Shown piece by piece: positions 7,738-63,772 of a stretch of DNA of 64,000 nt. The notes under the pieces are model-generated. The model had not been told where the DNA came from. It worked only from the letters and a program-made list of their open reading frames with translations, and did no database searches. Where the stretch lies: IMG/VR virus record IMGVR_UViG_3300035199_001057, positions 1-64,000 of that record, one strand, 5' to 3'. The translations under genes and the position numbers were made by a program. Every line of letters starts with the position of its first letter. Position 1 is the stretch's first letter. The DNA comes from a virus.

Positions 7738-8295
7738 TTACACTATCACTTCGTCGTTGTCAAGCTTTTTTTTGGACTGTAGTAGTTTGAGGCCCGCCTT
7801 GGCGATCACGGTGGCGTCGGCGATATCAAAATACTTGGGTTTGGGGTTCCCATGAGAAGTATATTCTACTGCGAAGTTGGGCACGTGCTCAAGGAGCCAT
7901 GCGACGACCTGCTTTTTGGTATTCTGTCCTCTTTCTACTTTAATTCCCAATTGTTTTCGCGAATGGGCTGCGGTGATATGCTGTGGCTGTTTATCAAATA
8001 TTTCATATGCCAACCATGATACCACCCCATTGAACCTCTGGAGAGTGGCCATCGTATTGGCGGTGGAGCCTCCGGACTTAAAAAATATGAGGGGCTTCTC
8101 GATATAAATCTTTTCAATAGGATATTGTACCTTCAGCCGGGTAAGCTCCTCTTTAATGAATGATGCCTTGTCAAACTCATTTTTAAACTTCTTTTTGTTT
8201 CTCATGTCCCAAGCATCGCATGTTATAATCTCGCTCTCCGCGTCAATTACACAAAAGCCTGTGATGCTTGTGCTTATATCTAAACCCAATATCAT
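7738..8295 (-). CDS. RuvC-like Holliday junction resolvase
   Basis: A 185-residue RNase H-fold nuclease. Four acidic residues match the RuvC catalytic set: Asp6 in ILGLDISTS, Glu66 in IYIEKP, and Asp157 and Asp160 in FDIADA. The length fits RuvC (~170 residues). It would resolve branched DNA made by recombination, the role T4 gives to an unrelated enzyme, endonuclease VII (gp49). The start at 8295 is preceded by AGGA. It sits just upstream of the primase and the Mre11-Rad50 fusion, forming a recombination-replication trio. A related RNase H-fold nuclease with another substrate cannot be excluded. Confidence 0.8.
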   Translation of the reverse strand: MILGLDISTSITGFCVIDAESEIITCDAWDMRNKKKFKNEFDKASFIKEELTRLKVQYPIEKIYIEKPLIFFKSGGSTANTMATLQRFNGVVSWLAYEIFDKQPQHITAAHSRKQLGIKVERGQNTKKQVVAWLLEHVPNFAVEYTSHGNPKPKYFDIADATVIAKAGLKLLQSKKKLDNDEVIV

Positions 8296-8305
8296 AATTT
8301 ATTTC

Positions 8306-9490
8306 CTATATGTCTAATTTTAACTTAAATGTGAAATCTCGTAAAGCAGTTTTTTTGATGGGGGTGGCTAGATTGGCCACTGCGATGAGATTTTTATTCT
8401 TATCGTAAATTCCTATTTTGTTTATAAACGTTTGATGCTTAAAGTCCGCCTCAAATCGGTAAAACGAACTGCTCACAGTATTGAATATTTCAATATTTTC
8501 AGATTCTTTATAGTGATAGGTGCCAGTTTGAGGCTGGTTTGTCGCAGCATCGTATGAAACTTTATCCAGGAGTGTTTGGTTGGCAGAAAAATTGAGTTCG
8601 GATCGGGGCGCCGTTGCGAACATGGTTAGAGTTTCAATGGGGTTCGTCCCTTCAAATTTAAATCTAAAGCTAGCTGAAGGGGTGATATCCGACGACCCAT
8701 CATTCGCGCCCAAAGCAAAGTCAATCCAGCGGAATGGACCGCTGTCTGTGTCGCGAGCAAAGGATTTCACCGTTAGGCCCCAGCTTCCAGTAAGAACAAC
8801 CACCCCCTCGTTATACAAAACAACTCCTGCAACCGAGCCGCTTCCATTCGTCTGCGCGATAGCACTCCCTGATACCTGTATTAACTCGCCGTTGCGGTAC
8901 AGGTCTTGAGCCTCCGCCGCGAGGGTACCAGAAATATAAAGTTGAAGAGTGGCGGTACCAGGATATATCTTGCTTCCGTAAAAAATGGAAGGGACATACA
9001 AAAGCGATAACTCCTGCACCGCTTTGTTGCCCAACGAAGATGAATAAGCGTAGTGGTTGGAGAGGGGTTGATAATAGTTGAGCGCTGTGCGCAAGGCGGA
9101 GACGTGGGATCCTGTTGGAAAGAGGGTTCCGTGATTGGCTACAAAGTGCTCTCTGGACAAAGACGCCGACATTGGATAAGACCCCGTGATGGAATCCCCG
9201 TATTCGAAGCTACTAAAGTAGTCCTTAAGGGAAACGTTCCCGATCGCTTCAAAGCTGCCATCTTTGGTAACGAAGGGGTAGGCTAAAGAGTCAGAAGGTC
9301 TGTCGACATTTATCTCATATAAACTTAGATTGCCCACCGGGACGCAACCCACGTTGCCCACGAAGGCGCCTGAAATTGCGTTCCTATTGTTAAGGTATAT
9401 ATTGCCGGCGTTAACGTCAAATTGAACTTCGGGGTGAGTCTCTAACGTATTGTGGAGAATCTCGTTCTCTTTAAACTTGTAGTAAGGCAT
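8306..9490 (-). CDS. Virion structural protein, paralogue of the next upstream gene
   Basis: A 394-residue protein, mostly short beta strands rich in Ser, Gly, Asn and Thr, typical of tail or fibre proteins. Its last ~40 residues read I-N-K-I-G-I-Y-D-x-x-x-N-L-I-A-V-A-N-L-x-x-P-I-K-K and end in K-L-D-I. The same pattern closes the adjacent 347-residue protein, so the two share a C-terminal domain and probably arose by duplication. The rest of the two sequences differs, as expected of exposed parts with different partners. It has no enzymatic motifs. It is the last gene of the virion block before RuvC, separated by 10 bases. Confidence 0.65.
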   Translation of the reverse strand: MPYYKFKENEILHNTLETHPEVQFDVNAGNIYLNNRNAISGAFVGNVGCVPVGNLSLYEINVDRPSDSLAYPFVTKDGSFEAIGNVSLKDYFSSFEYGDSITGSYPMSASLSREHFVANHGTLFPTGSHVSALRTALNYYQPLSNHYAYSSSLGNKAVQELSLLYVPSIFYGSKIYPGTATLQLYISGTLAAEAQDLYRNGELIQVSGSAIAQTNGSGSVAGVVLYNEGVVVLTGSWGLTVKSFARDTDSGPFRWIDFALGANDGSSDITPSASFRFKFEGTNPIETLTMFATAPRSELNFSANQTLLDKVSYDAATNQPQTGTYHYKESENIEIFNTVSSSFYRFEADFKHQTFINKIGIYDKNKNLIAVANLATPIKKTALRDFTFKLKLDI

Positions 9491-50468: not shown

Positions 50469-50802
50469 AAAGGTCCTCCATTGTCTTGCCCCAATTGGTA
50501 AAATGGTAAGCGCGGTCGTCGATATAGACCTTCGCTGGTACCTTAGTGTTCGTAATCTCCGCAAAATAAGAGTCTAGATCGTATTTTTTCAGCCATTCTT
50601 CAATAACTGGGACGCTACGGCTGGAAAAGACGACGAGACGGTAGCCCTCTTCTTTGAGGCGCTTAATGGCGTCAACTGCGCCTTCCATGGGGGGGTCATA
50701 GGCGTTATCCATTCCTTGCCAGCGTTTCGAATATCGATGAATCACTCCATCAAAGTCAATCGCGATGGTATTTTTCTTTACCTCATCATCAATTTCTTTC
50801 AT
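50461..50802 (-). CDS. HAD-superfamily phosphatase
   Basis: A 113-residue small HAD hydrolase. Motif I is IAIDFDGVIH, with nucleophile Asp16 and Asp18; motif II is VVFSSR, with a Ser in the usual Ser/Thr place; a late acidic motif is VYIDDRAYHF. There is no cap domain. Short HAD proteins of this type occur widely in phages and nucleotide-sugar clusters, where they remove phosphate from sugars or nucleotides; the substrate here is unknown. The ATG at 50802 has a perfect AGGAGG, overlaps the dehydrogenase stop as ATGA, and the gene's own stop overlaps the APS kinase start. One possibility is removal of adenosine 3',5'-bisphosphate left by sulfotransfer, but no sequence evidence supports that. 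Confidence 0.75.
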   Translation of the reverse strand: MKEIDDEVKKNTIAIDFDGVIHRYSKRWQGMDNAYDPPMEGAVDAIKRLKEEGYRLVVFSSRSVPVIEEWLKKYDLDSYFAEITNTKVPAKVYIDDRAYHFTNWGKTMEDLFD

Positions 50803-51638
50803 GCTTTCCTCCTGGATGTCGCACCTTCAATTTCTTCCCAATCAGCATTTTCTCTTACTTCGATGTTTTTTTGCCATGCCGCGCTTAAAAGGGTGGGGCT
50901 TACATTCACTTCCTTGAAAAAATTAATAAACGCGTTGATATCTTTAGGAAAACACTTGCCCCCAAAGCCAAGCTTTCCGTCGTGACCAGGGACGTCGACG
51001 TGAGAGTTTCCCACACGACCGTCGGACAAGAATCCGCACATTATATTTGGCCAATCAAGACCTAATTGGTCGGCGGCTTGCTTCATTTCATTCATATAAG
51101 AAATTTTAGTGGCGAAGAAACAATTACACATGTACTTTATAAATTCGGCAGATGTGCTATCAGTGCTAATAATGGGTGTGTGTTGGAATCGATCGCGATA
51201 TAGCGCCCTTACGCGGTCGCAGGCGTCTTCGGATCCGCCTATGATAATTCGTGAGGCGTTTATAAAATCCAAGCGAGCAGAACGTTCCGTAAGAAATTCT
51301 GGATTAAACACAATCTCAAAGTCTGGAAACTCTTGTGCTAGGAGTTCTGTGGTGCCGGGTACAACGGTCGATTTTAAAATAAAGATGGAGTTGGGGTTGG
51401 CAGGCGATGCGCGGCGGAAAACATCTCTCACAATGGATAGGTCGATTTTATTGCCGTTCTCCAGATTCATTGGAGTAGGCACGCATACAAAAACAAACTC
51501 GCAATTAAGCACCTCTTCTAAAGTGTGGAGGCTTTTTTTATCATCCGCATCATACACGCAAACATGCGCATGTAACGCATATGCGCTAGCGACTGCCGAA
51601 CCCACAAAGCCGTTTCCTATAATTCCAACGGTATACAT
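50799..51638 (-). CDS. Short UDP-glucose/GDP-mannose-type 6-dehydrogenase
   Basis: A 279-residue nucleotide-sugar dehydrogenase. The N-terminal Rossmann fold has GNGFVG (8-13), then CVPTP (52-56) and STVVPGTT. The central domain has NPEFL near residue 112, Lys168 in EFIKYMCN and the catalytic Cys229 in GGKCFPKD. The family oxidises C6 of UDP-glucose or a related sugar to the uronic acid using NAD. Full-length enzymes have ~390-450 residues; this one stops soon after the catalytic Cys and lacks the C-terminal UDP-binding domain. The reading frame ends cleanly and overlaps the next gene, so it is probably a genuine short form. The 51-base gap upstream and weak ribosome site hint at a local transcription boundary. 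Confidence 0.8.
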   Translation of the reverse strand: MYTVGIIGNGFVGSAVASAYALHAHVCVYDADDKKSLHTLEEVLNCEFVFVCVPTPMNLENGNKIDLSIVRDVFRRASPANPNSIFILKSTVVPGTTELLAQEFPDFEIVFNPEFLTERSARLDFINASRIIIGGSEDACDRVRALYRDRFQHTPIISTDSTSAEFIKYMCNCFFATKISYMNEMKQAADQLGLDWPNIMCGFLSDGRVGNSHVDVPGHDGKLGFGGKCFPKDINAFINFFKEVNVSPTLLSAAWQKNIEVRENADWEEIEGATSRRKA

Positions 51639-51982: not shown

Positions 51983-52636
51983 TTATTCTTTTCTTTCCCA
52001 CACAGTGTTAAAATTGGCTGGTTCCGGGGTGCTATTATCCCAGAATTCATAAAATTTTCGCTCGTATATATTATAGTAGGGGTCGTCCTGAAATTTAAGG
52101 GGCTCATAGCCCCATTGAGCCAGGTGGTTGGTAGTATCATCGACTGAGAAATTGCCGTGGTGGACTGTTTCGGCCCGGATGTAGCGCGGCAAAATCTTTT
52201 CAAAATCTACGCCTTGCAAAAGGGGCAAATCTAGCCCTTCAATATCTATCTGCAGTAGCTCAAACTCGACTCCTATTAAATTATATTTCTCTAAAAGAGG
52301 GTAAAGTTCTAAATAGGGCACCTCAACACTCGTCGTTTTCGTGTTCAAGACGCTTGCTTGTTCGTGGGAATTGTGAGAGGGACGATTCGCGCGATAGTAC
52401 AACGGTATAGTCCCTGAATCGGCGTGTTTGGCTTGTAACTTGGGCGTCACAATGGCCACTTGTTCAAAAAAGCAATTCTGATATTGGGAATAATATTCCT
52501 TAAGCTTTTTAAAGCTGGCGGGGTGAGGCTCCACGAAGAGCCCTGAAAGGCCTGGCCGTTCCTCAAAGAGCGCCCACACCATATCACTATGCGATTTTCC
52601 CACATTTGCGCCGAGTTGTACCACGTCGATAGACAA
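51983..52636 (-). CDS. FkbM-like SAM-dependent methyltransferase
   Basis: A 217-residue protein. Residues 5-15 (VVQLGANVGKS) make the SAM-binding glycine-rich loop, FVEPHPASF is the acidic motif II, and LLQIDIEGLDLPLLQGV is the FkbM-type motif with the acidic residues that follow the conserved D-I/V-E-G. FkbM-family enzymes O-methylate hydroxyl groups, often on sugars of surface polysaccharides or antibiotics. The start is a TTG at 52636, one base after the previous stop, with GGAAGAG upstream; an ATG four bases further out is in another frame. It is one of three FkbM domains in the island. Confidence 0.75.
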   Translation of the reverse strand: MSIDVVQLGANVGKSHSDMVWALFEERPGLSGLFVEPHPASFKKLKEYYSQYQNCFFEQVAIVTPKLQAKHADSGTIPLYYRANRPSHNSHEQASVLNTKTTSVEVPYLELYPLLEKYNLIGVEFELLQIDIEGLDLPLLQGVDFEKILPRYIRAETVHHGNFSVDDTTNHLAQWGYEPLKFQDDPYYNIYERKFYEFWDNSTPEPANFNTVWERKE

Positions 52637-52637
52637 T

Positions 52638-53873
52638 TCATTCTCTTCCTATCACTTCAAAGGCAGGGCATGGAACAATAAATTTGCCCCCCTGGTTTAA
52701 AAACGCTGCCTCCCTTTCTACAAATTCTTTGATGAAATGCCAGGGCAACACTAATAGATAGTCCGGTGAGGCCTCTCTCATCTCTTTTTCTGAAATAATA
52801 GGAATATTAGTTCCTACCGTGTATTTGCCAAACTTGGCTGGGCTGCGCTCAGCGATGGCCGTAATATCATCAGGCGTGAGGCCATAGTACTGAAGAAGCG
52901 TGTTACCCTTTGTAGAGGCTCCGTAACCATACACAGTCTTACCTTTGGCTATTTCTCCACGAATAAAATCAACTGTTTGCTTTTTCATCTTTTCTAATTT
53001 AGTGTAAAATTCTTTCCACACTTCCGGCTTGGAAATGTCGGAATGCTCTTGCTCATAAGCGAGGATGGTATTGACTCGAAACTCACACACGTCGCGCAAT
53101 GGCGTGGTGCCAAATGATGTTTCTTTGGCAATAGTTTTCTGAAGGTAGACTCGGCATGAGCCGCCGTTTGTGTCATTTAAAGAGCAGTCGACAATTTTAA
53201 ATCCATGGGGTTCTACTAGCTTTTTCATACTGTTGAGTGAAAAATAGTACACATGTTCATGGCAAATATTGTCAAAGGCCATTTGCTTAACCATCAGAGG
53301 GGTATAAGAGAGTTGAACCACCCAAACACCATCATCTTCTAGAATATTGTAAACGTCTTCAATGAAAGGGTTGGGGTCATCCAAATCATAGAACATGGCA
53401 ATCGTTGTTACCACCTTACATTTTTTATCCCCATAGCCGCTTTTTTGGTACGAACTGTAAGAAAAGTAGTCTTGAACAACGCTATCTGCCACCTGAGAAG
53501 ATAATTCAACAAAGGAGTCTTCAACTGGGTCAATGCCGACTTTGATAAATTCATCCGGAATAAATCTAAACATTGTTCCATCATTACATGCGATGTCCAG
53601 CCAAACATCGTCTTTTTGATATTTGATGCGGCTGCTGACTTCTTCGGCGATGTTCTTCAACTGGTTCGTCATCGAAGCGTTGGTTCCAGATCGATACCAA
53701 TATTTACCGTACATTTTGTCGGGATCTACCACTTGTGTGAGGCGGGGAGCCCCGATTTTTTCATCCATTACCAAAGTGAGAGCGGCTTTTTCTTTGCCCT
53801 CATATTCCTTATTAATGTCCGTTAAAAAGTCTGATATAAAATGGCTTCCTAGATCAAGTAGATTCTCTGTCAT
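52638..53873 (-). CDS. NDP-hexose C-methyltransferase family protein
   Basis: A 411-residue protein of the sugar C-methyltransferase family (TylC3/NovU-like), which adds a methyl to C3 or C5 of a dTDP-keto-sugar. The layout is typical. An N-terminal domain ends in GKYWYRSGTN. The SAM motif is WLDIACNDGT (91-100). CHEHVYYFSL (~209-218) and NGGSCRVY are the catalytic-domain motifs, and the C-terminal domain has YGASTKGNTLL and PGT-like GTNIPI. The N-terminal domain usually binds zinc through four cysteines, yet the equivalent stretches here (TENLLDLGSH and LTLVMDEKIGAPRLTQV) have none. The ATG at 53873 has GGAGAA upstream. It fits with the 2,3-dehydratase and ketoreductase further upstream in making a branched dideoxysugar. 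Confidence 0.8.
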   Translation of the reverse strand: MTENLLDLGSHFISDFLTDINKEYEGKEKAALTLVMDEKIGAPRLTQVVDPDKMYGKYWYRSGTNASMTNQLKNIAEEVSSRIKYQKDDVWLDIACNDGTMFRFIPDEFIKVGIDPVEDSFVELSSQVADSVVQDYFSYSSYQKSGYGDKKCKVVTTIAMFYDLDDPNPFIEDVYNILEDDGVWVVQLSYTPLMVKQMAFDNICHEHVYYFSLNSMKKLVEPHGFKIVDCSLNDTNGGSCRVYLQKTIAKETSFGTTPLRDVCEFRVNTILAYEQEHSDISKPEVWKEFYTKLEKMKKQTVDFIRGEIAKGKTVYGYGASTKGNTLLQYYGLTPDDITAIAERSPAKFGKYTVGTNIPIISEKEMREASPDYLLVLPWHFIKEFVEREAAFLNQGGKFIVPCPAFEVIGRE

Positions 53874-54519: not shown

Positions 54520-55230
54520 TTAACTCTGTTCCTTGCGCTTTTTTATACATTCTAATATGAGGTCCATGTCTTCCATTTGAAATGGACCGGAACAGCCATA
54601 CGGGCGGCGACAGTCCCAACGGGGAACGGGCACTCCTTTGCGATATATATTCGCAGCTTCAAAGACATTCTCGGGATGATCTGACGAAATAATGGTCGCC
54701 CCGTCCTTCATAGACTCTGCTATATTGGACAATTCAAAGTCCCAAGCCGAGAATCCCGGCTTCAAATATCTTTGAAAGTATTTCTTCCGCCAAATAGAGG
54801 GATGAAGCGTTGTGCGATAAGTGGCAGTCTGGTTAAGACATACTAGGCCCTCTTTATACGGGTCCGCGTTTCCATTTAAATGGGTATCCAAAACCGCCTT
54901 ATCGGCGCGTCCGTGCTTTATTTCCTCTTCCAAGAGAGCCATTCTTTCTAGATTTACGTAATTCATTAGCATCATATCCTCGACGGTTACAATGAAATAT
55001 TCGTCCTCTAAAGACTCAATAAAGGGGATGAGAGGGTCAGTCCACACAAGGCCGAAATCTTCCTGCTTGCCCAAAGAATGAAAAGTACAGTTAGAAGGCA
55101 AATCCGGCGCTGAGTCGGGGTCAAACCCTAAAAAAACAATCTCTTGGCCCGGCCAATGTTTGTTGAACAAATGGCTATAGGGCTCTAGCAAAAAAGCGTA
55201 TTGATTAGAGGTAGTTACCAAAACTTTCAT
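54520..55230 (-). CDS. Probable glycosyltransferase-like protein
   Basis: A 236-residue protein starting at the ATG at 55230, which overlaps the GMD stop as TAATG; an in-frame start at 55245 is less likely. The N-terminus (MKVLVTTSNQYAFLLEPYS) is a beta-strand-turn typical of nucleotide-sugar-binding folds. VTVEDMMLMN near residue 85 may serve as the acidic donor-binding site, and a W-D-F-E-L-S segment near residue 165 lies where many GT-A enzymes have their acceptor helix. I could not place it in a named family. Context among GMD, GT8-like and methyltransferase genes suggests glycan assembly. Confidence 0.5.
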   Translation of the reverse strand: MKVLVTTSNQYAFLLEPYSHLFNKHWPGQEIVFLGFDPDSAPDLPSNCTFHSLGKQEDFGLVWTDPLIPFIESLEDEYFIVTVEDMMLMNYVNLERMALLEEEIKHGRADKAVLDTHLNGNADPYKEGLVCLNQTATYRTTLHPSIWRKKYFQRYLKPGFSAWDFELSNIAESMKDGATIISSDHPENVFEAANIYRKGVPVPRWDCRRPYGCSGPFQMEDMDLILECIKKRKEQS

Positions 55231-56195
55231 TATGAATTTTCCCAAATTTTAATGTCATTCAGGACCATTTTGCGTACCATCTCTTCAAAAGAAACTTTGG
55301 GCGCCCATCCTAGGGCTTTCTGAGCCTTGGCCGCACTGCCCACCAAAACATCTACCTCGGCCGGGCGCATGTGTCGCGGGTCTTGTTGAACATACTGTTG
55401 CCAATTTTCTATGCCAACGCAGTGAAAAGCCGCTTTTAGAAAATCTCTTACAGAGTGGGTTTCGCCGGTCGCGATCACATAATCATCCGGTTTAGGCTGC
55501 TGCAGCATCATCCACATCGCTTCGACGTAATCGGGCGCATAGCCCCAGTCGCGCTTCGCATCTACGTTTCCTAAAGAGATATGGTCTGCTATGCCTAAAT
55601 GAATTTTGGCGACCCCATCGGAAATCTTTCGCGTGACGAACTCTATACCGCGGCGCTCTGATTCATGGTTAAACAAAATTCCGCTGCAGGCGTAGACACC
55701 GTAAGACTCTCTATAATTTTTAGTTATCCAGTGGCCATAAACTTTAGCGACGCCATAAGGACTACGCGGGTAAAATCGAGTAGTTTCAGTCTGGGGCGTC
55801 TCCGTGACTTTTCCAAACATTTCGGAAGTTGAAGCCTGATAGAATCGAACTGGTTTATCGTAGGCGCGCACAGCTTCGAGCATTCGCAAGACACCTAATG
55901 CGTCAACGTCGCCAGTAGCTTCTGGGGAGTTCCAGCTTTCCCCTACAAAGGACATGGCGCCGAGATTATAAATTTCATCGGGTTGTGCCATTTGGATACA
56001 CCGCAATAAAGAGTTTTGGTCAGTCAAATCCCCGTTAATAAAGGTTATTTTCCCCTCTAGGTGCTTTGTATTAACTCTGTTTTTGGTGGAGGAGCGACGC
56101 TCCATACCATAAATCTTATAATCCTTGGTTAATAAAAAATCAGCCAAGTAGCTTCCGTCTTGGCCATTAACGCCTGTAATCAATGCTGTTTTCAA
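55230..56195 (-). CDS. gmd: GDP-mannose 4,6-dehydratase
   Basis: A 321-residue short-chain dehydrogenase/reductase that converts GDP-mannose to GDP-4-keto-6-deoxymannose. The N-terminus GVNGQDGSYLADFLL is diagnostic of GMD. The catalytic residues are Thr123, Ser124 and Glu125 in ASTSEMFG, and Tyr147 and Lys151 in YGVAK. NHESERRG and RDWGYAPDYVEAMWMML are also typical. Length is close to bacterial GMD (~345-370), slightly short. The start is a TTG at 56195 with GGGGAGG upstream. The product normally feeds GDP-fucose, GDP-rhamnose, colitose or perosamine routes, but no reductase or aminotransferase for this keto-sugar was seen here. Confidence 0.92.
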   Translation of the reverse strand: MKTALITGVNGQDGSYLADFLLTKDYKIYGMERRSSTKNRVNTKHLEGKITFINGDLTDQNSLLRCIQMAQPDEIYNLGAMSFVGESWNSPEATGDVDALGVLRMLEAVRAYDKPVRFYQASTSEMFGKVTETPQTETTRFYPRSPYGVAKVYGHWITKNYRESYGVYACSGILFNHESERRGIEFVTRKISDGVAKIHLGIADHISLGNVDAKRDWGYAPDYVEAMWMMLQQPKPDDYVIATGETHSVRDFLKAAFHCVGIENWQQYVQQDPRHMRPAEVDVLVGSAAKAQKALGWAPKVSFEEMVRKMVLNDIKIWENS

Positions 56196-56223: not shown

Positions 56224-56925
56224 TTATCCGTATACTCTTTGATAGTCCAATTTAGCCTGGTCTAGTTTGTTGTCGATACCTTGGGCCTTGGCGTCTTCAA
56301 ACAAGCCGACGCCTGCGTAGTGTATAATATGGGAATCAAACCGGCTTGGCCCTCCATTCCAGTCTTGCGAAAACATGGTCATGTGATTAAATTTGTAGCC
56401 TAAGTCGTTGATCTCAAAGCCATTCTTTTTAATTAGATACCCTATATGTACATCATCGCTGCCCCAGTCAGTCCAATATTCCCCGTTGATTTTCGTATAA
56501 ATCTCTCGATGTTCTTTGGATGTAACGAAAACGCCAGTATTTATATATTCCCGATTCCAGCCAATAGCGCCAAATTTTTGCTGCGCAAGATAGATGCTCT
56601 GCAGGCGCGCATGCTGGCGAGGGCCTTTATCCTCGCAACACGTGCCAATTTCATCGGGGTCTACAACTTCAAAAAGATTAGGGCAGTTTGGCATAATCAA
56701 GGTATCCGTATCTATATGTAAAATTCTATCATATTCCTCATGAAGCTCATAATGCTTCATGATACGATAATGCCAGCGGCCGTCGCCAACATCGCAATCA
56801 GTAACATAATCAATCACCTGAAAATCGGCGCCAACTTTCGCGGCGTACTCTTTTAGGAGAGGATGAGTTAAGGCAACCCAATCGGGAATTCGATTGTCTG
56901 CGCGCGTAGTTATTAATAATTTCAT
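56224..56925 (-). CDS. Glycosyltransferase, GT8-like
   Basis: A 233-residue protein with a GT-A fold. ILHIDTDTLIMPN (68-80) holds the metal- and nucleotide-binding DxD (Asp72-Thr73-Asp74), INTGVFVTS follows at the acceptor site, and IIHYAG near residue 208 corresponds to the HxxGxxKPW-type end motif of GT8 enzymes. The family transfers galactose, glucose or related sugars from UDP donors with retention. It would add a sugar to a host or virion glycan. The start ATG overlaps the sulfotransferase-FkbM stop as ATGA. The substrate is unknown. Confidence 0.75.
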   Translation of the reverse strand: MKLLITTRADNRIPDWVALTHPLLKEYAAKVGADFQVIDYVTDCDVGDGRWHYRIMKHYELHEEYDRILHIDTDTLIMPNCPNLFEVVDPDEIGTCCEDKGPRQHARLQSIYLAQQKFGAIGWNREYINTGVFVTSKEHREIYTKINGEYWTDWGSDDVHIGYLIKKNGFEINDLGYKFNHMTMFSQDWNGGPSRFDSHIIHYAGVGLFEDAKAQGIDNKLDQAKLDYQRVYG

Positions 56926-58361
56926 TTTTTAATCTTTTCTTGAGGAATACAAATATATTCTCCCCACTTGGTTAAAGAAGGTACGCGCTGGCCGAAATCA
57001 TTGTAAACATTATAGCCTAGCCTATCAAACGTTTCAAAATCAAAACCTCCATCTTCGGGCTTGACAAAACCGGGATAGCCTTCATATGATATATCCATTC
57101 CTGCATGGAAACCTATTTGCCATATAGGTCTTACGTTTTCAAGAATATTTTTCATTCCAAAAAGGGCTAAAGTTTCCATGCCCTCGATGTCCAACTTCAC
57201 AAAATCAGGAGGTTTTATATTGTTTTCTTTTACATAATCATCAAAAACAACATATGAAATTTTTCTGGCCACGGGATCATCATCAGTACAATCATTAAAT
57301 TTAGTCGTTACTACTTTTTTCTCGTTATTCAAAGCACATAAATATAATTCAATATTATACGGTTCACAGTTTTTCTTGGCCCGGTCGAAATTATCCGGAA
57401 AACCCTCAAAAGCAGATACTTCCATTCCTTCTAAGGCCATCGTGATGCCAAAAGTTCCAATATAAGCGCCGATATCGTACACAACGCTTCCGGGTTTAAT
57501 TAACCTTAGTATTTTATCAAAATTGTGATCGGCTCTTCTATATAAATTTCCTTGAAGAATATATCTATCAATGTTATTGCCGGATGCAAAAAGATCATAA
57601 AATTTAATGTCATGACCCTTATAGTTAACTGTCGCATCCTTTTTTTGAATTGAAGGAAGAGTGGCGTGGTTATATCCAAAAAACTCTGAATAGGGTCTTA
57701 GGTCTTCGAAAAGCGCGGCTACATCCACTTTACATTTGCGCCAGTCGGCAAAAAACTCATCATAAATTTGATATTTTCGTTTATATAAACCTACTTGGCT
57801 TTTATCAAGCGTCTTATAGCGCCACCCCTTTTGAACAGTGCGATATCTTCCTATAAAATTATTCATATTTTCGTTGTAAGGTATTTCACAAAATTGGCAC
57901 ACCTCTTTAACTGTGTCATGAAATTCTAGGATTATATCCTCCATTTTAATTAACTTTATTCTTTCCGGATAATTTTCCGTAATATGGACATAAACTTGTT
58001 TCATCCACTCAATATCTTCTAAGCAGCCCTGGTGTGTGGCGTCGTCTGCTAATCCGTAAGATGGGCCTTCATGGCCGGGTTGACCGCGGTAGATTTTAGA
58101 CAAAGCCATATCTCTAGGGTCTCGTATTGTCCACAAGATTTTCATTTTCGGATTGTTGTCTAAAAAGGCACTAACCTGTTCTACATTATCGATATATACT
58201 GTATCACACTTGCTTAAATAATTCTCATAAACCAATTGACCTCTACGTACCACTTGTTTATCTTCAGCCATAGGAGTAGCTTCAAGTTCCGGAGAGCCAC
58301 GTAAAATTTCTAATAACATATTGGTGCCAGTTCGGCCACAACTTAAAACTAAAACACTCAT
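56922..58361 (-). CDS. Bifunctional sulfotransferase-FkbM methyltransferase
   Basis: A 479-residue fusion. Residues ~1-225 are a PAPS-dependent sulfotransferase: VLSCGRTGTNMLLEIL (5-20) is the 5'-phosphosulfate-binding loop and ILWTIRDPRDMALS (75-88) binds the 3'-phosphate through Arg and Ser. The remaining ~250 residues are an FkbM methyltransferase: VVYDIGAYIGTFG (~293-305) binds SAM and FVKLDIEGMETLALFGM (~385-405) is the family hallmark. It could transfer sulfate and methyl to neighbouring hydroxyls of the same glycan. GGGGG lies 7 bases upstream of the ATG at 58361. PAPS would be supplied by the APS kinase of this island. The acceptor (sugar or tyrosine) is not shown by sequence. Confidence 0.8.
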   Translation of the reverse strand: MSVLVLSCGRTGTNMLLEILRGSPELEATPMAEDKQVVRRGQLVYENYLSKCDTVYIDNVEQVSAFLDNNPKMKILWTIRDPRDMALSKIYRGQPGHEGPSYGLADDATHQGCLEDIEWMKQVYVHITENYPERIKLIKMEDIILEFHDTVKEVCQFCEIPYNENMNNFIGRYRTVQKGWRYKTLDKSQVGLYKRKYQIYDEFFADWRKCKVDVAALFEDLRPYSEFFGYNHATLPSIQKKDATVNYKGHDIKFYDLFASGNNIDRYILQGNLYRRADHNFDKILRLIKPGSVVYDIGAYIGTFGITMALEGMEVSAFEGFPDNFDRAKKNCEPYNIELYLCALNNEKKVVTTKFNDCTDDDPVARKISYVVFDDYVKENNIKPPDFVKLDIEGMETLALFGMKNILENVRPIWQIGFHAGMDISYEGYPGFVKPEDGGFDFETFDRLGYNVYNDFGQRVPSLTKWGEYICIPQEKIKK

Positions 58362-58363
58362 TT

Positions 58364-59086
58364 TTAATCCCCCTTATACACTGCCCAATTCGTCTCATGA
58401 TACGAACCCATGGTACCCGCATCAGACCACTTACCCTCTAATATATCAAATGAACAAATGTCCTCTCCGATGAAAAAATTGTTTACAGTAGAGATTTCAT
58501 ATTCGCCACGATCGGAGCGCTTTATTTTATCGATAACATCAAACACTTTATTACTGTAAAAATATATGCCTATACATGCTAAATTTGTTTGCGGCTTAAG
58601 TGGCTTTTCGTCAACACGAATTAGTCTATCTTTTTTAAACACTCCTACTCCATATCTACGCGGGTCCGCAACGCGTTTAAAAAATAATCTACATTCTTCA
58701 TTACTAATTTTAAAGCTTGTTACATAAGATTTTAAACTATCTTTAAAGATATTATCACCCAAAATTACTGCACACGTGTCATCACCAACAAAATCTCTAC
58801 AAAGTTGTAATGCGCCAGCAATCCCATCAGGTTCATCTTGTACTCTATAAGTAAAGGAGCATCCATATTCTTTGCCGCTGCCGAGGAGAGTCATGATATT
58901 TCCGCAATGTTCTACTCCAGTGATTATCATTATATCTTCAATTCCAGCTTCAACAAGCTTGCGTATTGGATGGTTAATCATAGGCTCTCCACCTAAAGGT
59001 AGAAGATGCTTGTTTGTTACCTTTGTAAGAGGATACAATCTGGTACCCTTCCCTCCAGCTAAAATAATTCCTTTAATTTTTCTCAT
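58364..59086 (-). CDS. rmlA: Glucose-1-phosphate thymidylyltransferase-type nucleotidyltransferase
   Basis: A 240-residue enzyme that would activate glucose-1-phosphate with dTTP to dTDP-glucose. The N-terminal loop IILAGGKGTRLYPLTKVTNKH, read as GGKGTRLYP (11-19) plus the following Lys, is diagnostic. VILGDNIF provides the metal-binding Asp, DEKPLKPQ the sugar-binding Glu-Lys, and WSDAGTM the second metal Asp. It is ~50 residues shorter than bacterial RmlA (~290) and lacks the allosteric C-terminal helices, as in some archaeal and phage forms. It overlaps the 3' end of rmlB by 14 bases. Only a weak ribosome site is seen, so coupling to rmlB is likely. Confidence 0.88.
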   Translation of the reverse strand: MRKIKGIILAGGKGTRLYPLTKVTNKHLLPLGGEPMINHPIRKLVEAGIEDIMIITGVEHCGNIMTLLGSGKEYGCSFTYRVQDEPDGIAGALQLCRDFVGDDTCAVILGDNIFKDSLKSYVTSFKISNEECRLFFKRVADPRRYGVGVFKKDRLIRVDEKPLKPQTNLACIGIYFYSNKVFDVIDKIKRSDRGEYEISTVNNFFIGEDICSFDILEGKWSDAGTMGSYHETNWAVYKGD

Positions 59087-60026
59087 AATACCATTCTATT
59101 GTTTTTTTAATCCCCTCGGAAAAAGTACTTTTAGGCTCCCATGCTAGCTCTAATAAAATTTTTGTATTATCAATAGCATATCTAAAATCATGCCCCAGGC
59201 GATCTGTGACATACTCAATATATTCATCCGGATGGACATCCATTAGGCCGCATATGGTTGTTATTACATCAATATTTCTTTTTTCGCAATTCGAACCAAT
59301 ACAATAAGTTTCTCCTAAATTTCCATTAATAAAGACATCCCACACACCTTCACAGTGATCTTTTACATAAATCCAATCTCTTACATTTACACCTTTACCA
59401 TAAAGAGGGATCTTCTCTTTGCTTAAAATGGAACTTATAACAGTGGGGATAAATTTTTCTTTGTGCTGCCGCGGCCCATAGTTATTAGAGCAATTGGAAA
59501 TCGTAATAGGCAGCTTAAATGTATGAAAATATGATTTAACGAGAAAATCAGAAGAAGCTTTAGAGGCTGAGTAGGGATTATGTGGGTTATATGGAGTTGT
59601 TTCGCTAAATTTGCCCGTTGGTCCCAGATCTCCATATACCTCATCCGTGGAAACATGATGAAATCTAATCACATCAGAAGCACGTGCGACCTTAAGCAGG
59701 TTGAACGTTCCTACAATATTGCTTTGTATAAAAACATCAGGATCTGTAATTGAATTATCTACATGACTCTCTGCCGCTAAATGAACCACATGAGTTATCT
59801 TGTGTCTTGTAAAAACATCAGCTAACTCGTCTAAAGAACATAAATTTACTTTTTCAAAAAAATATTTCTCATCATTCGAAAAGTCTTCTGTATTCTTAAG
59901 GTTGCCGGCATAAGTAAGGGCATCTAAATTTACTACTCTAGACACAGCGTTTCTTTTGGTTTGCAATACCATTTCTATAAAATTCGAACCAATAAACCCG
60001 GATCCGCCTGTTACCAATAAGTTCAA
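59073..60026 (-). CDS. rmlB: dTDP-glucose 4,6-dehydratase
   Basis: A 317-residue enzyme converting dTDP-glucose to dTDP-4-keto-6-deoxyglucose, the branch point for deoxysugars. TGGSGFIGSNF (6-16) binds NAD; HVSTDEVYGD gives the catalytic Thr127, Asp128 and Glu129; YSASKAS gives Tyr152 and Lys156. ISNCSNNYGPRQ and the GKGVNVRDWIYV stretch are diagnostic of RmlB. The start is a TTG at 60026 with GAGG 5 bases upstream. It follows the ketoreductase after 54 bases and overlaps rmlA. rmlC and rmlD are not in the window, so the product is not obviously rhamnose. Confidence 0.92.
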   Translation of the reverse strand: MNLLVTGGSGFIGSNFIEMVLQTKRNAVSRVVNLDALTYAGNLKNTEDFSNDEKYFFEKVNLCSLDELADVFTRHKITHVVHLAAESHVDNSITDPDVFIQSNIVGTFNLLKVARASDVIRFHHVSTDEVYGDLGPTGKFSETTPYNPHNPYSASKASSDFLVKSYFHTFKLPITISNCSNNYGPRQHKEKFIPTVISSILSKEKIPLYGKGVNVRDWIYVKDHCEGVWDVFINGNLGETYCIGSNCEKRNIDVITTICGLMDVHPDEYIEYVTDRLGHDFRYAIDNTKILLELAWEPKSTFSEGIKKTIEWYYEKN

Positions 60027-60080
60027 TATAACCTCGCCTTACAGTTTTTTATAATACTTTATATTGCTTAAATCTTTAAA

Positions 60081-61016
60081 TTAATTTTTGAGCTTTTCAA
60101 TAAAAGCAATTCTTTCTAGAACATCAGAACCATATGATATTTTTTTATCAATGCGTTCAGAAAACACGTTTAACATGTTAACAAAATGATCTTCTTTCGC
60201 CGTCGGGTGCTTTACACAATTTCCATTAGACCAGACTTCAATAGGTAGTTCACATTGAGAAGGGCGCGTAAATACTCTACTTGCCTTTAAAATGCCCTTG
60301 GTGCCCCACGCTATTATTTCATTACGATACGCATGCCCCAAGCCATAAGAAATATTTGCTATTGAGTTGGGGTACTTAAATTGTATATATCCTCTTTCGT
60401 CCACGCCGGTTCTTTCATCATAAAAATTACAATGTGATATATCAAGGTGGCTAGTTCCCAAAATTGAGAATACAAAACTAAGTGGATATATCAAACAGTC
60501 CAACATTGCGCCGCCGCCTAATTCTTTAAAATAGCGAATATTTTTTTTATCATCAAAATGCGGAAAACCAAAATGAGCTTCAAGACATTTTATTTTTCCA
60601 ACATGTGTTGATAAGGTTTTTATTTGTTTTTGTATTGGATGGAACTCGTACATTAGCGCCTCCATACAACATAATTTCTTTTCTAGCGCTAGTTGAAAAA
60701 GCTCATTAGCTTGAGAGTGAGTTTCCGTAAAGGTTTTTTCCATCAAAAGGTGCTTTCCCGATTCAAGTACTTTCTTGCCCCACTCATAATGCAGCCCTAC
60801 CGGTAAAGAAACATATATAGCCTCTACATCGCTACTTAACAACTCTTCATAAGAAAAAGCTGCCGTGTAATTTTCTTGCGCTTGTGCGGTTGCCTTTGTG
60901 GCGTCTCTCGAAGCTATGCCAGAAAGTACAAAACTATTACATTCTTTAATAGCCGGAATTACAGATCTTTTAGCAATTGAGGAACACCCCAGTATACCAA
61001 TTTTTTTGTTTTGCAT
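60081..61016 (-). CDS. Gfo/Idh/MocA oxidoreductase, probable NDP-hexose 3-ketoreductase
   Basis: A 311-residue NAD(P)-dependent oxidoreductase. IGILGCSSIAKRSVIPAI (6-23) is the cofactor-binding loop, LMEKTFTE carries the family's Glu93-Lys94 pair, and YFKELGGGAMLDCLIYP is the active-site helix typical of the family. Members near a 2,3-dehydratase (KijD10 type) reduce C3 of the diketo-sugar formed by that enzyme, giving a 2,6-dideoxy-4-keto sugar. It begins one base after the stop of the 2,3-dehydratase, a strong argument for this substrate. The local DNA is very AT-rich. Assignment to C3 reduction is by context. Confidence 0.78.
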   Translation of the reverse strand: MQNKKIGILGCSSIAKRSVIPAIKECNSFVLSGIASRDATKATAQAQENYTAAFSYEELLSSDVEAIYVSLPVGLHYEWGKKVLESGKHLLMEKTFTETHSQANELFQLALEKKLCCMEALMYEFHPIQKQIKTLSTHVGKIKCLEAHFGFPHFDDKKNIRYFKELGGGAMLDCLIYPLSFVFSILGTSHLDISHCNFYDERTGVDERGYIQFKYPNSIANISYGLGHAYRNEIIAWGTKGILKASRVFTRPSQCELPIEVWSNGNCVKHPTAKEDHFVNMLNVFSERIDKKISYGSDVLERIAFIEKLKN

Positions 61017-61017
61017 T

Positions 61018-62421
61018 CTAAGCTTCTTTATAATACGACGCCAAAGTTAACAAAGTTCGTGATTCTATGTTAACACTACATTCGTAAGAAGTCATTTTTT
61101 TTAATTGGTAGAGGGTAATCCATTTATGCCGATCAGACACGCTAACACTAGAATCTTTATCCAATTTTATGAGCATATATCGATTCTTTTGCTCCATAAA
61201 ACGGCCGCCCTCTTCTGATTGAAAGCAGTCATAAAAGAGGTGACTTTTTTCATCTTTAACCCCAAATTTGCTCAACTCCTTTTTCAAGGAAAATGTGTTG
61301 GAATCCAATGAATGAAAAGATGGGCCCAATTCAGCCCCATTCCAACTAAAATCTTCTTCAACTAGTTGAACAAGGACATGAAGAACATTGTTGAACTCTT
61401 TCAATAAAAAACCATACACTTTTGGTATGTTATCTCTAACTATTGGCTGACACCATGAAGATACTTCACGTGAACCAATAGAAGCTTTAACACCTACAAG
61501 CTCAAAATTTTTGTTTTCCTCGTGACATAGGCTTTGATCGGACATTTTCCAACCATGCTTGTATAATTTCGCCAGTGGTACCAGTTTGTGTTCAATTCGC
61601 TTATTATCTTTTGCTGCTAGCAGCCATTCCCGAATGAAGCTAAGTGAATGTAGCGCATCGTGATCTGAGAGAGAAGAAAATAAAAGCTGTAATTCTAAAG
61701 AGGTAAACTTAGTCCTAATGCCTTGAGCGCCCTCGATTAACTCATCGCGCGAAATTGATCTGTCAAAAAAATCAATTGTTGCCAACACAGAACGCGTGTC
61801 CATATTAATACAATGTTCTTTGGATAGCATGTGTCTGATATCATTTAAGGTTAACCAAGCAAACTTGTTGTCTATTATAGTTATCTCATCATCACTGGCG
61901 TGTACATTATCATTGGCCTTTTTATAAAACTTATACCCGTGCTCCGACTGATATCCTCGTGATTTTATTTTTGGAGAGCCGTCTAAAAAGCTTTCGATAT
62001 AAGCTACGCTTTTTCCCTTATGTGCTCCAGTATAATTGCTTTTAGTGGCTTGAACGGTTGGGGAATACTGAACGCTATCTAAATTACCGGGTTCGATTTT
62101 CGCCTGTAAAAGAAGCTCTATCTGCCCCTCATTAATGCGCGAAACAATTCCTAGTATTCCTTGTTCTGGTTGATCGATTACTGGTTGATATCGCGTAATC
62201 CCTAATTCTTTATCAACAGCTCTTGCCCCTCGGATGCTAAAAAACTTTCCACTTTGGTGTGAAATAGCCTCATTGGGGAAATAATTCCATTTTTCCATTT
62301 CATCAAAATCGATTCTTAAAATGTTAACCTGCAGGGAGCGCCGGTAACGTTCTAAAGCAGAAAATAAGTTGTCTTCATTCACATCACTCAAATAACTTTT
62401 TAAAAATTGATCAAAGATCAA
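61018..62421 (-). CDS. NDP-hexose 2,3-dehydratase
   Basis: A 467-residue enzyme of the NDP-hexose 2,3-dehydratase family (TylX3/EvaA/GraOrf27 type), which removes the C2 hydroxyl from dTDP-4-keto-6-deoxyglucose. The protein is an internal duplication, as expected. The first half has KFFSIRGARAV and LLLQAKIEPGN, then SPTVQATKSNY (120-130), and ends with FAWLTLNDIRHML. The second half has the equivalent VLVQLVEED, GPSFHS and HKWITLYQLKKM. The start is a TTG at 62421 with GGAG upstream and matches the family's usual N-terminus. In the second half the QAKxEPGN motif is degenerate, which is normal for this family. It lies between the B12 radical SAM gene and the ketoreductase. Confidence 0.9.
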   Translation of the reverse strand: MIFDQFLKSYLSDVNEDNLFSALERYRRSLQVNILRIDFDEMEKWNYFPNEAISHQSGKFFSIRGARAVDKELGITRYQPVIDQPEQGILGIVSRINEGQIELLLQAKIEPGNLDSVQYSPTVQATKSNYTGAHKGKSVAYIESFLDGSPKIKSRGYQSEHGYKFYKKANDNVHASDDEITIIDNKFAWLTLNDIRHMLSKEHCINMDTRSVLATIDFFDRSISRDELIEGAQGIRTKFTSLELQLLFSSLSDHDALHSLSFIREWLLAAKDNKRIEHKLVPLAKLYKHGWKMSDQSLCHEENKNFELVGVKASIGSREVSSWCQPIVRDNIPKVYGFLLKEFNNVLHVLVQLVEEDFSWNGAELGPSFHSLDSNTFSLKKELSKFGVKDEKSHLFYDCFQSEEGGRFMEQKNRYMLIKLDKDSSVSVSDRHKWITLYQLKKMTSYECSVNIESRTLLTLASYYKEA

Positions 62422-62425
62422 AATT

Positions 62426-63772
62426 TTATTCTCCGGCGCTTTGAATTGATTTTATATTGGCACCAATTGGAGTAGACGTCGATTGTTTCTCTAGCTCTCT
62501 CATATCTCCAAAACCACCGACCTGTGAAGAATCTTCCTGCCGCTCACACAGAAGTAAATCATATTTAGTTTTAAAATAAGCCTGTTGCGATTTCAGTTCA
62601 ATATTGGTGAAATGCTCCGTATACCAAAAGTTGTTGGAGTACTCGTCCGCAAGCTCCCAGTCCACATCTTTGTGGGCCACTGGGTCGTAAAAATTAGTTC
62701 CCGGATAAGGGCACAAAATGGTGAACCCTACGACATCCGGCTTAATTTCATCGATAAGTTGCTCTGTTAACAGGAGATCTTCGCGAGTCTCGTTGGGCAT
62801 TCCAAATAGGAAAAAGCCGCGGCGCTCGACACCATATTTTTTGGCCCATTCAAAAACATTACGTATAGTTTTAGTTTTAAGACCTTTGCCGATTTGCTTT
62901 AATATTCTATCGCTTCCACTTTCGCATCCAATGTTCACCTGATGACACTGAGATTTTTTAAGCCACTTGAACATCTCCTCGCTGGCGAAGCTCGCGTGAA
63001 TCAAGCACTCCCATTCTGTGGTGATTCCTCTTTTGATCTTCTCCTTACAAAACTCGATTACAAAGTTAGCAGAAATATCGAAAGTGGCGTCAACAAATTT
63101 AAAATAATTCAAGTCCAATTGCTCGATTACGTGTTCGATTTCATCGCACATTTCACTGACATCTCGTGACCTAATAGGATTGTTCCTCTTGTGAAATCGA
63201 CCCGAGATAATTCTTTCCGCGCAAAAAGCGCAATTGACCGGGCAAACTCGGTTACATTGAAAAGATGCGATCCGCTTGCCATTCATTGACTCACACAGAT
63301 CTACTGTGCGGTGGTTTTTAATGACTTCTCGATCAGGCCATGGCAATTCTTGCATTGGGGGTTTTGTTCCCGGGATAATGGGATCCGTGAAATTTCCACT
63401 TACGAGTTGAAAGAAAGATTCTTCGCCTTCACCTAGTATAACATGGTCAATAGCGTCATGAGAAATACACTCTTCTGGAAGCGCCGTGGGGTGATAACCT
63501 CCAACCACTGTGCGTGTTTGGGGGCTTTTTTCCTTGATCATTTGCGCCAGACGCAATGCGTGAGGCCATGCGGGAGAGGTACATGAAAATCCAACAACGT
63601 GAGCGTCCGCGCATGCTTCAATAATAGTTTCGTCCGTATCAAAATTACCTTGATAACACTGGAGGTCGAGATCTCCCACATAATGTTTTTTAAGATAAGA
63701 GGCTATAAAGCCTAGGCCAATTGGCTCCCATATATTCTCATAATAAGGTTGTACTAATATTACTTTTTTCAT
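62426..63772 (-). CDS. B12-binding radical SAM enzyme
   Basis: A 448-residue enzyme. Residues ~1-140 look like a cobalamin-binding domain with GFSCTSPAWPHALRLAQMIK and VVGGYHPTALPEE. The radical SAM core starts with the iron-sulfur motif CPVNCAFC (Cys177, Cys181, Cys184). GCESGSDRIL and FLFGMPNET are typical SAM- and core-domain segments. Such class B enzymes methylate unreactive carbons or phosphorus, or rearrange carbon skeletons, in antibiotic, hopanoid and sugar pathways. The ATG overlaps the upstream stop as ATGA. Location next to the deoxysugar genes suggests a sugar or lipid carrier substrate. The last ~45 residues are low in complexity. Confidence 0.8.
   Translation of the reverse strand: MKKVILVQPYYENIWEPIGLGFIASYLKKHYVGDLDLQCYQGNFDTDETIIEACADAHVVGFSCTSPAWPHALRLAQMIKEKSPQTRTVVGGYHPTALPEECISHDAIDHVILGEGEESFFQLVSGNFTDPIIPGTKPPMQELPWPDREVIKNHRTVDLCESMNGKRIASFQCNRVCPVNCAFCAERIISGRFHKRNNPIRSRDVSEMCDEIEHVIEQLDLNYFKFVDATFDISANFVIEFCKEKIKRGITTEWECLIHASFASEEMFKWLKKSQCHQVNIGCESGSDRILKQIGKGLKTKTIRNVFEWAKKYGVERRGFFLFGMPNETREDLLLTEQLIDEIKPDVVGFTILCPYPGTNFYDPVAHKDVDWELADEYSNNFWYTEHFTNIELKSQQAYFKTKYDLLLCERQEDSSQVGGFGDMRELEKQSTSTPIGANIKSIQSAGE

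What the first reader, a model, noticed from the sequence alone, without database searches (positions are those of the whole stretch)
56922..58361. Sulfotransferase and FkbM methyltransferase fused in one chain
One 479-residue frame holds a complete-looking sulfotransferase followed by a complete-looking FkbM domain, both with cofactor motifs intact. The fusion suggests sequential modification of the same acceptor, perhaps adding sulfate and methyl to one sugar.
Basis: seen in the sequence. Interest (0 to 1): 0.66.

Follow-up and report, generated by a model that had tools for sequence, protein, structure and literature searches.

The report
Phage sulfotransferase fused to sugar methyltransferase
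A marine virus of bacteria carries, inside a block of sugar-making genes, one gene that joins a sulfate-adding enzyme to a methyl-adding enzyme; in related viruses these are two separate genes, so the join looks like a one-off, but together with a nearby gene that makes the sulfate donor it points to viruses that can sulfate sugars.

Summary
On the MINUS strand, 58361..56922 is one uninterrupted 479-aa frame with a sulfotransferase (ST, aa 1-230) and an FkbM-type methyltransferase (aa 240-479), both above curated cut-offs, motifs intact, both folding confidently. The record is an 89-kb IMG/VR phage contig; the gene lies in a roughly 25-kb glycan-synthesis island next to phoH, as in P-SSM2-type phages.

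In every related viral contig found (about 24), the two halves are separate genes: adjacent in two contigs (L092/L093), apart in two, only one found in the rest. The fusion is therefore unique to this contig so far. The window junction lacks the stop, Shine-Dalgarno and start codon that separate L092's genes, so a single indel error does not explain it; a chimeric join cannot be excluded without reads. Because either half occurs without the other, obligatory sequential modification of one acceptor is not supported.

More interesting is the context: the island also encodes a DUF2061-APS kinase (makes the donor PAPS). Eight of 10 viral contigs with this kinase carry sulfotransferase genes nearby, sometimes next door. 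Best reading: a phage sulfation module in a glycan island, with the fusion as a local variant. Acceptor and activity are untested.

The parts
56922..58361 (-). Fused ST-FkbM gene, 479 aa
57672..58361 (-). Sulfotransferase domain, aa 1-230 (ends ...FFGY, where most stand-alone relatives stop at or just after FGY)
58320..58343 (-). SCGRTGTN, 5'-phosphosulfate-binding loop (aa 7-14)
   Evidence: invariant in the 10 viral ST sequences except T11 (T/S)
58098..58124 (-). RDPRDMALS, 3'-phosphate-binding motif (aa 80-88)
   Evidence: R80, D84 and S88 invariant
57645..57671 (-). Linker NHATLPSIQ (aa 231-239); no stop, no Shine-Dalgarno, no start codon
   Evidence: compared with L092
57639..57645 (-). 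A AAA AAG heptamer in the phase used by dnaX-type -1 frameshifting, at the domain boundary; function speculative
56925..57644 (-). FkbM-family methyltransferase domain (FkbM-a), aa 240-479
57450..57476 (-). DIGAYIGTF, SAM-binding motif (aa 296-304)
57174..57197 (-). KLDIEGME, FkbM signature (aa 389-396)
56224..56925 (-). GT8-like glycosyltransferase, overlaps the fused gene's end by 4 bases; directly follows ST in L094, L109, L110, L113, L114, L116
49734..50564 (-). DUF2061 membrane segment + adenylylsulfate (APS) kinase; makes PAPS, the ST donor
   Evidence: APS_kinase 1.8e-43; DUF2061 8.8e-8; relatives
58364..59086 (-). Sugar nucleotidylyltransferase (RmlA-like)
59073..60026 (-). dTDP-glucose 4,6-dehydratase-like (RmlB)
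60081..61016 (-). GFO/IDH/MocA oxidoreductase
61018..62421 (-). NDP-hexose 2,3-dehydratase
   Evidence: 7.4e-97
62426..63772 (-). B12-binding radical SAM protein
55230..56195 (-). GDP-mannose 4,6-dehydratase
   Evidence: 4.1e-132
54520..55245 (-). Unassigned protein (hyp241), fused to an FkbM domain in L009
53875..54519 (-). Second FkbM methyltransferase (FkbM-b)
52638..53873 (-). Sugar C-methyltransferase (Methyltransf_14)
51983..52636 (-). Third FkbM-like methyltransferase (FkbM-c)
50799..51638 (-). UDP-glucose/GDP-mannose dehydrogenase-like

Best explanation
The gene is a so far unique in-frame joining of two independent tailoring enzymes of a marine phage's glycan island. Proposed working: host sulfate is activated to APS by host ATP sulfurylase; the phage DUF2061-APS kinase phosphorylates it to PAPS, perhaps at the membrane; the N-terminal ST domain transfers sulfate to a hydroxyl of a sugar or oligosaccharide built by the island's NDP-sugar enzymes and glycosyltransferases (most likely near the step of the adjacent GT8-like enzyme); independently, the C-terminal FkbM domain O-methylates a sugar hydroxyl using SAM. 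The fusion keeps the two at 1:1 but is not needed for either reaction. Shown: the frame, both domains and motifs, both predicted folds, separate genes in relatives, an APS kinase in the same island and repeated APS kinase-ST neighbourhood. Inferred: activities, acceptor, order, and a host-surface (rather than virion or DNA) destination.
For: Domains and motifs; folds. Phage record: 89,130-bp IMG/VR virus with T4-type baseplate wedge relatives, SbcCD, primase and RuvC, late sigma. Relatives with separate genes: L092/L093 ST 8001-8687 ending FGY-TAA, then GAGG and ATG, FkbM-a 8707-9435, at 65% and 59-60% identity; L094 and L009 not adjacent; others carry one only. Window junction: TAT AAC CAC GCC ACT CTT CCT TCA ATT CAA AAA AAG GAT, with no ATG/GTG/TTG to start FkbM for any length of the A-run I considered, whereas nearly all relatives start FkbM-a with ATG at this point. 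PAPS supply: DUF2061-APS kinase; no PAPS reductase or ATP sulfurylase hit in the contig, arguing against assimilation. Eight of 10 DUF2061-APSK viral contigs carry a sulfotransferase of one of three Pfam families, against 4 of 14 FkbM-bearing comparison contigs (Fisher one-sided p 0.018, 0.063 after merging likely duplicates); in L129 the ST gene ends 10 bp before the kinase and in L126 an ST starts 19 bp after it.
Against: No activity is shown. The contig is a fragment, so missing genes prove little. The closest relatives with both genes (L092-L094) have no APS kinase on their contigs, so ST may rely on host PAPS. The APSK-ST association is from few, partly redundant contigs chosen by homology, and the comparison contigs were not a random sample. 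The fusion rests on one assembly.
Confidence: 0.6

Rival explanations
1. The fusion is an evolved bifunctional enzyme that sulfates and methylates the same sugar in sequence.
For: Two intact domains in one chain; ST and FkbM-a adjacent in L092/L093.
Against: Each half occurs without the other in many contigs and in non-adjacent positions in L094 and L009; FkbM-a of the window does not group with that of L092, which pairs with L094 at 99/99; fusion seen once.
Confidence: 0.15
2. The continuous frame is an assembly or sequencing artefact joining two adjacent genes.
For: Only one contig has it; relatives have two genes; the junction holds an A7 run and no other viral contig has the junction sequence.
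Against: A change in A-run length does not create a start codon for FkbM; stop, Shine-Dalgarno and ATG of the L092 arrangement are all absent; both flanks are compactly packed with neighbours on the same strand; GC is alike on both sides (0.378 and 0.352). A chimera exactly at the gene boundary remains possible.
Confidence: 0.15
3. The island modifies phage DNA or virion proteins rather than a host-surface glycan, with sulfation as part of it.
For: No flippase or polymerase was recognised in the ORFs I read or scanned (not a dedicated search); PMC10829341 cites glycosyl- and sulfotransferase-based nucleotide modification in phages.
Against: Gene content (heptose- and deoxysugar-type enzymes, GT4/GT8/GT9-like transferases, position next to phoH) matches the surface-polysaccharide islands described for cyanophages (PMC7824862, PMC3037559); no base-modification enzymes were recognised here.
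Confidence: 0.2

Closest known systems
Stand-alone viral ST and FkbM-a genes of IMG/VR contigs L092/L093 (3300008952_003042, 3300008954_003537)
   Same: Same two proteins (65% and about 59% identity), same order and strand, same island genes
   Different: Two genes with stop, 19-bp spacer, Shine-Dalgarno and ATG instead of one frame
LPS/surface-polysaccharide gene clusters of cyanophages P-SSM2 and S-SSM7 (PMC3037559; PMC7824862)
   Same: Large sugar-biosynthesis island near phoH with epimerases, cupin, PfkB-like kinase, nucleotidyltransferases, glycosyltransferases
   Different: Here with a sulfation pair (APS kinase plus sulfotransferase), three FkbM domains and deoxysugar enzymes; in PMC7824862 the words sulfotransferase and FkbM do not occur
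Sulfotransferases reported in marine phage genomes (PMC10580990: OM43 phage genomes and Synechococcus phage S-SRM01)
   Same: Sulfotransfer_3 domain proteins encoded by phages; authors call the function unclear
   Different: No ST-half match for our protein in 50,697 phage records at E up to 10; ours sits in a glycan island with a PAPS-making kinase
Tyrosylprotein sulfotransferase / SULT / heparan 3-O-sulfotransferase fold
   Same: Best fold matches of the ST half, PAPS motifs in place
   Different: About 10-18% identity, query TM mostly 0.45-0.64; acceptor not inferable

Membership tests
PAPS-dependent sulfotransferase (Sulfotransfer_1/3 superfamily) | Profile match above curated cut-off | tested here: met
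   43.1 bits vs 22; 41.3 vs 27
PAPS-dependent sulfotransferase (Sulfotransfer_1/3 superfamily) | 5'-phosphosulfate loop and 3'-phosphate motif (Arg and Ser 8 apart) | tested here: met
   SCGRTGTN; R80/S88 invariant in 11 sequences
PAPS-dependent sulfotransferase (Sulfotransfer_1/3 superfamily) | Sulfotransferase fold | tested here: met
   pLDDT 86.5; 74 PDB matches at E<=0.001, top ones sulfotransferases
PAPS-dependent sulfotransferase (Sulfotransfer_1/3 superfamily) | Catalytic base | tested here: inconclusive
   E33 invariant in the 10 viral sequences, only nearly invariant once the archaeal relative is added; not mapped onto a solved active site
PAPS-dependent sulfotransferase (Sulfotransfer_1/3 superfamily) | Sulfate transfer activity | not testable with these tools
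   needs assay
FkbM methyltransferase family (PF05050/TIGR01444) | Profile match above curated cut-off | tested here: met
   33.6 vs 22.7; 61.3 vs 37.7
FkbM methyltransferase family (PF05050/TIGR01444) | SAM motif DIGAxxG and K-D-EG-E signature | tested here: met
   the usual FEP is FEG in this subfamily
FkbM methyltransferase family (PF05050/TIGR01444) | O-methylation of a sugar or other hydroxyl | not testable with these tools
   needs assay
Conserved ST-FkbM fusion family | Same fusion in at least one independent genome | tested here: not met
   none in the viral contigs found, none in phage or plasmid records, one archaeal ST hit without FkbM half
Phage surface-glycan island (P-SSM2 type) | Multi-gene sugar synthesis and transfer cluster near phoH in a T4-like phage | tested here: met
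   PMC3037559
Sulfate assimilation auxiliary genes (cysC/cysH type) | PAPS reductase and/or ATP sulfurylase alongside APS kinase | tested here: not met
   no hits in the contig; contig incomplete

The most novel reading that the evidence does not exclude
Marine phages carry a dedicated, portable sulfation module: a membrane-tethered (DUF2061) APS kinase that makes PAPS during infection, paired with exchangeable sulfotransferases of at least three Pfam families, which sulfates a phage-specified glycan. This would give a function to the phage sulfotransferases that the literature calls unexplained; the ST-FkbM fusion is one variant of its output end.
Probability: 0.45. Interest if true: 0.62.

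Novelty: new variant of a known kind. Interest (0 to 1): 0.42.

Why it matters
The fusion alone is a curiosity: one contig, no conserved partner architecture. Its surroundings matter more. Sulfotransferases are reported in marine phages with unknown function (PMC10580990), and phage sugar islands have even been suspected of being 'stuffer DNA' (PMC3037559). Finding the donor-making APS kinase repeatedly beside sulfotransferases in such islands turns this into a testable claim: infected cells (or virions) should carry phage-dependent sulfated sugars, which would change surface charge and could block competing phages.

Tried and rejected
Searching the whole protein in annotated phages and plasmids found only weak FkbM-half matches. 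A single-protein scan of viral contigs found nothing; alignment-based scans worked. An early apparent full-length match in L092/L093 (aa 1-478 in 1,426 bases) looked like an independent fusion but is two genes in different frames; rejected. L009's full-span match is two genes in reversed order with a third between them. A combined ST+FkbM alignment misaligned the halves (A10) and was not used; the halves were modelled separately, so domain arrangement is unknown. A homopolymer-length error as the cause of the fusion was considered and rejected for lack of any start codon. Programmed -1 frameshifting at the A AAA AAG heptamer was considered: a stop follows four codons later, giving ST alone, and a stem-loop lies downstream (-18.6 kcal/mol, z -3.3), but the stem begins at the slip site itself rather than a few bases on, and with one fused member there is no conservation to test; kept as a remark only. 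A broad domain-architecture survey of cellular genomes was not possible: one genome scan gave a single distant hit, an archaeal ST (L118).

Full report
OBSERVATION. The frame is real and on the minus strand: 58361..56922 translates to 479 aa without internal stops. Two domains score above curated cut-offs: sulfotransferase aa 3-167 and FkbM methyltransferase aa 296-414. The motifs for PAPS (SCGRTGTN; R80/S88) and SAM (DIGAYIGTF; KLDIEGME) are present and conserved across viral relatives. AlphaFold2 models of the halves are confident (86.5 and 89.5) and match sulfotransferases (TPST, SULT, heparan 3-O-ST) and the solved FkbM protein 2py6 respectively.

WHERE IT LIES. The window is part of an 89,130-bp IMG/VR virus record. 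The baseplate wedge protein has T4-type phage relatives; SbcCD, primase, RuvC and a late sigma factor are present. From about 49.7 kb to about 73.5 kb of the contig all main genes run on the minus strand and encode sugar synthesis and transfer: APS kinase with a DUF2061 segment, HAD, UDP-glucose-dehydrogenase-like, DUF4254, three FkbM domains, a sugar C-methyltransferase, GDP-mannose 4,6-dehydratase, RmlA/RmlB-like, NDP-hexose 2,3-dehydratase, GFO/IDH/MocA, B12 radical SAM, and then, partly assigned only from my reading of the sequence, an aminotransferase, heptosyltransferase-like and GT4-like transferases, PfkB, and RpiB-nucleotidyltransferase. Beyond it comes PhoH (L002 11506-12867, assigned from its sequence). 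Large LPS-type clusters near phoH are known from P-SSM2-like cyanophages (PMC3037559; PMC7824862).

RELATIVES. Alignment-guided scans of IMG/VR found about 24 contigs with close relatives of either half. None has the fusion. L092/L093 come closest: ST (65%) ends FGY-TAA, 19 bases with GAGG follow, then FkbM-a starts with ATG in another frame. L094 and L009 have both genes apart. ST alone: L109, L110, L111, L113-L116; FkbM-a alone: L090, L091, L095-L103. ST directly precedes a GT8-like gene in L094, L109, L110, L113, L114 and L116, and in the window the fused gene overlaps the same GT8-like gene by 4 bases; an archaeal (Lokiarchaeota MAG) surface-sugar locus also has ST near a GT8 gene. The nearest relative of the window's ST is L092's, while L092's FkbM-a pairs with L094's (99/99) and not with the window's. 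L009 has a different fusion (hyp241 with FkbM-b, 445 aa; separate genes in the window), so FkbM domains have been joined to neighbours at least twice in these islands.

IS THE FUSION AN ERROR? The junction (codons 230-242: TAT AAC CAC GCC ACT CTT CCT TCA ATT CAA AAA AAG GAT) has none of the three signals that separate the genes in L092. Changing the A-run length does not supply a start codon to FkbM. Therefore a single indel does not explain it. A chimeric contig cannot be excluded: no reads, and no second contig with this junction (near-identical records may be hidden from the search).

THE SULFATION LINK. The APS kinase makes PAPS, which can be reduced (assimilation) or used by sulfotransferases. 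No PAPS reductase or ATP sulfurylase was found in the contig. A scan for DUF2061-APSK found 10 viral contigs with full-length relatives (51-71% identity); 8 carry a sulfotransferase of PF13469, PF03567 or PF00685, against 4 of 14 comparison contigs (p 0.018, or 0.063 with likely duplicates merged). From the contig coordinates at least one sulfotransferase lies within about 7 kb of the kinase in each of the eight; in L129 and L126 the genes are neighbours. L120 shares the window's HAD-APSK-dehydrogenase neighbourhood and carries a Sulfotransfer_2 gene. This is suggestive, not proof; L092-L094 show ST without APSK on the contig.

MECHANISM. Most likely the ST domain sulfates a hydroxyl of the island's glycan from phage- or host-made PAPS, and the FkbM domain O-methylates a sugar hydroxyl; the joint chain is a local variant. 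Destination (host surface, virion or DNA) is open; gene content favours a surface glycan, while no export gene was recognised.

VERDICT. Observation confirmed; fusion unique so far and not required by either half; interesting mainly as a pointer to a phage sulfation module. I found no paper in the held library combining these terms, which is weak evidence of novelty because the library is incomplete.

Noticed in passing
window 57639-57645 (-): In-phase A AAA AAG slippery heptamer exactly at the domain boundary; the -1 frame stops after four codons (would yield ST alone). Stem-loop downstream, z -3.3, but starting at the slip site. Four in-phase A AAA AAG sites in about 19,100 codons checked.
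   Followed up: partly
L009 7986-9323: A different gene fusion in a related phage: hyp241-like protein joined to FkbM-b (445 aa), separate genes in the window.
   Followed up: partly
window 52638-53873 and 58364-62421 (-): RmlA, RmlB, NDP-hexose 2,3-dehydratase, GFO/IDH/MocA and a Methyltransf_14 C-methyltransferase together resemble the early steps of 2,6-dideoxy C-methyl sugar (mycarose-type) pathways, unusual in a phage (from own knowledge).
   Followed up: no
L002 15361-16527 (-), contig about 79361-80527: Possible tubulin/FtsZ-like protein (GGGGGTGS; PF00091 E 0.0014, below cut-off).
   Followed up: partly
L002 5179-6138 (-): RpiB-type isomerase fused to a cytidylyltransferase-like domain in one 319-aa frame.
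   Followed up: no
L118 6001-8825 (Lokiarchaeota MAG contig JAHPYZ010000055.1): The only cellular relative found of the phage ST lies near a GT8 gene that is 45% identical to the window's GT8-like protein over 165 aa; possible gene exchange between phages and archaeal surface-sugar loci.
   Followed up: partly
L126 8001-10380; L129 7223-8711: DUF2061-APS kinase directly beside sulfotransferase genes in two other viral contigs.
   Followed up: yes
L003 1967-4114 (-): Cysteine-rich repeat protein with a von Willebrand-like tail in the phage contig (my reading of the sequence; not scanned).
   Followed up: no
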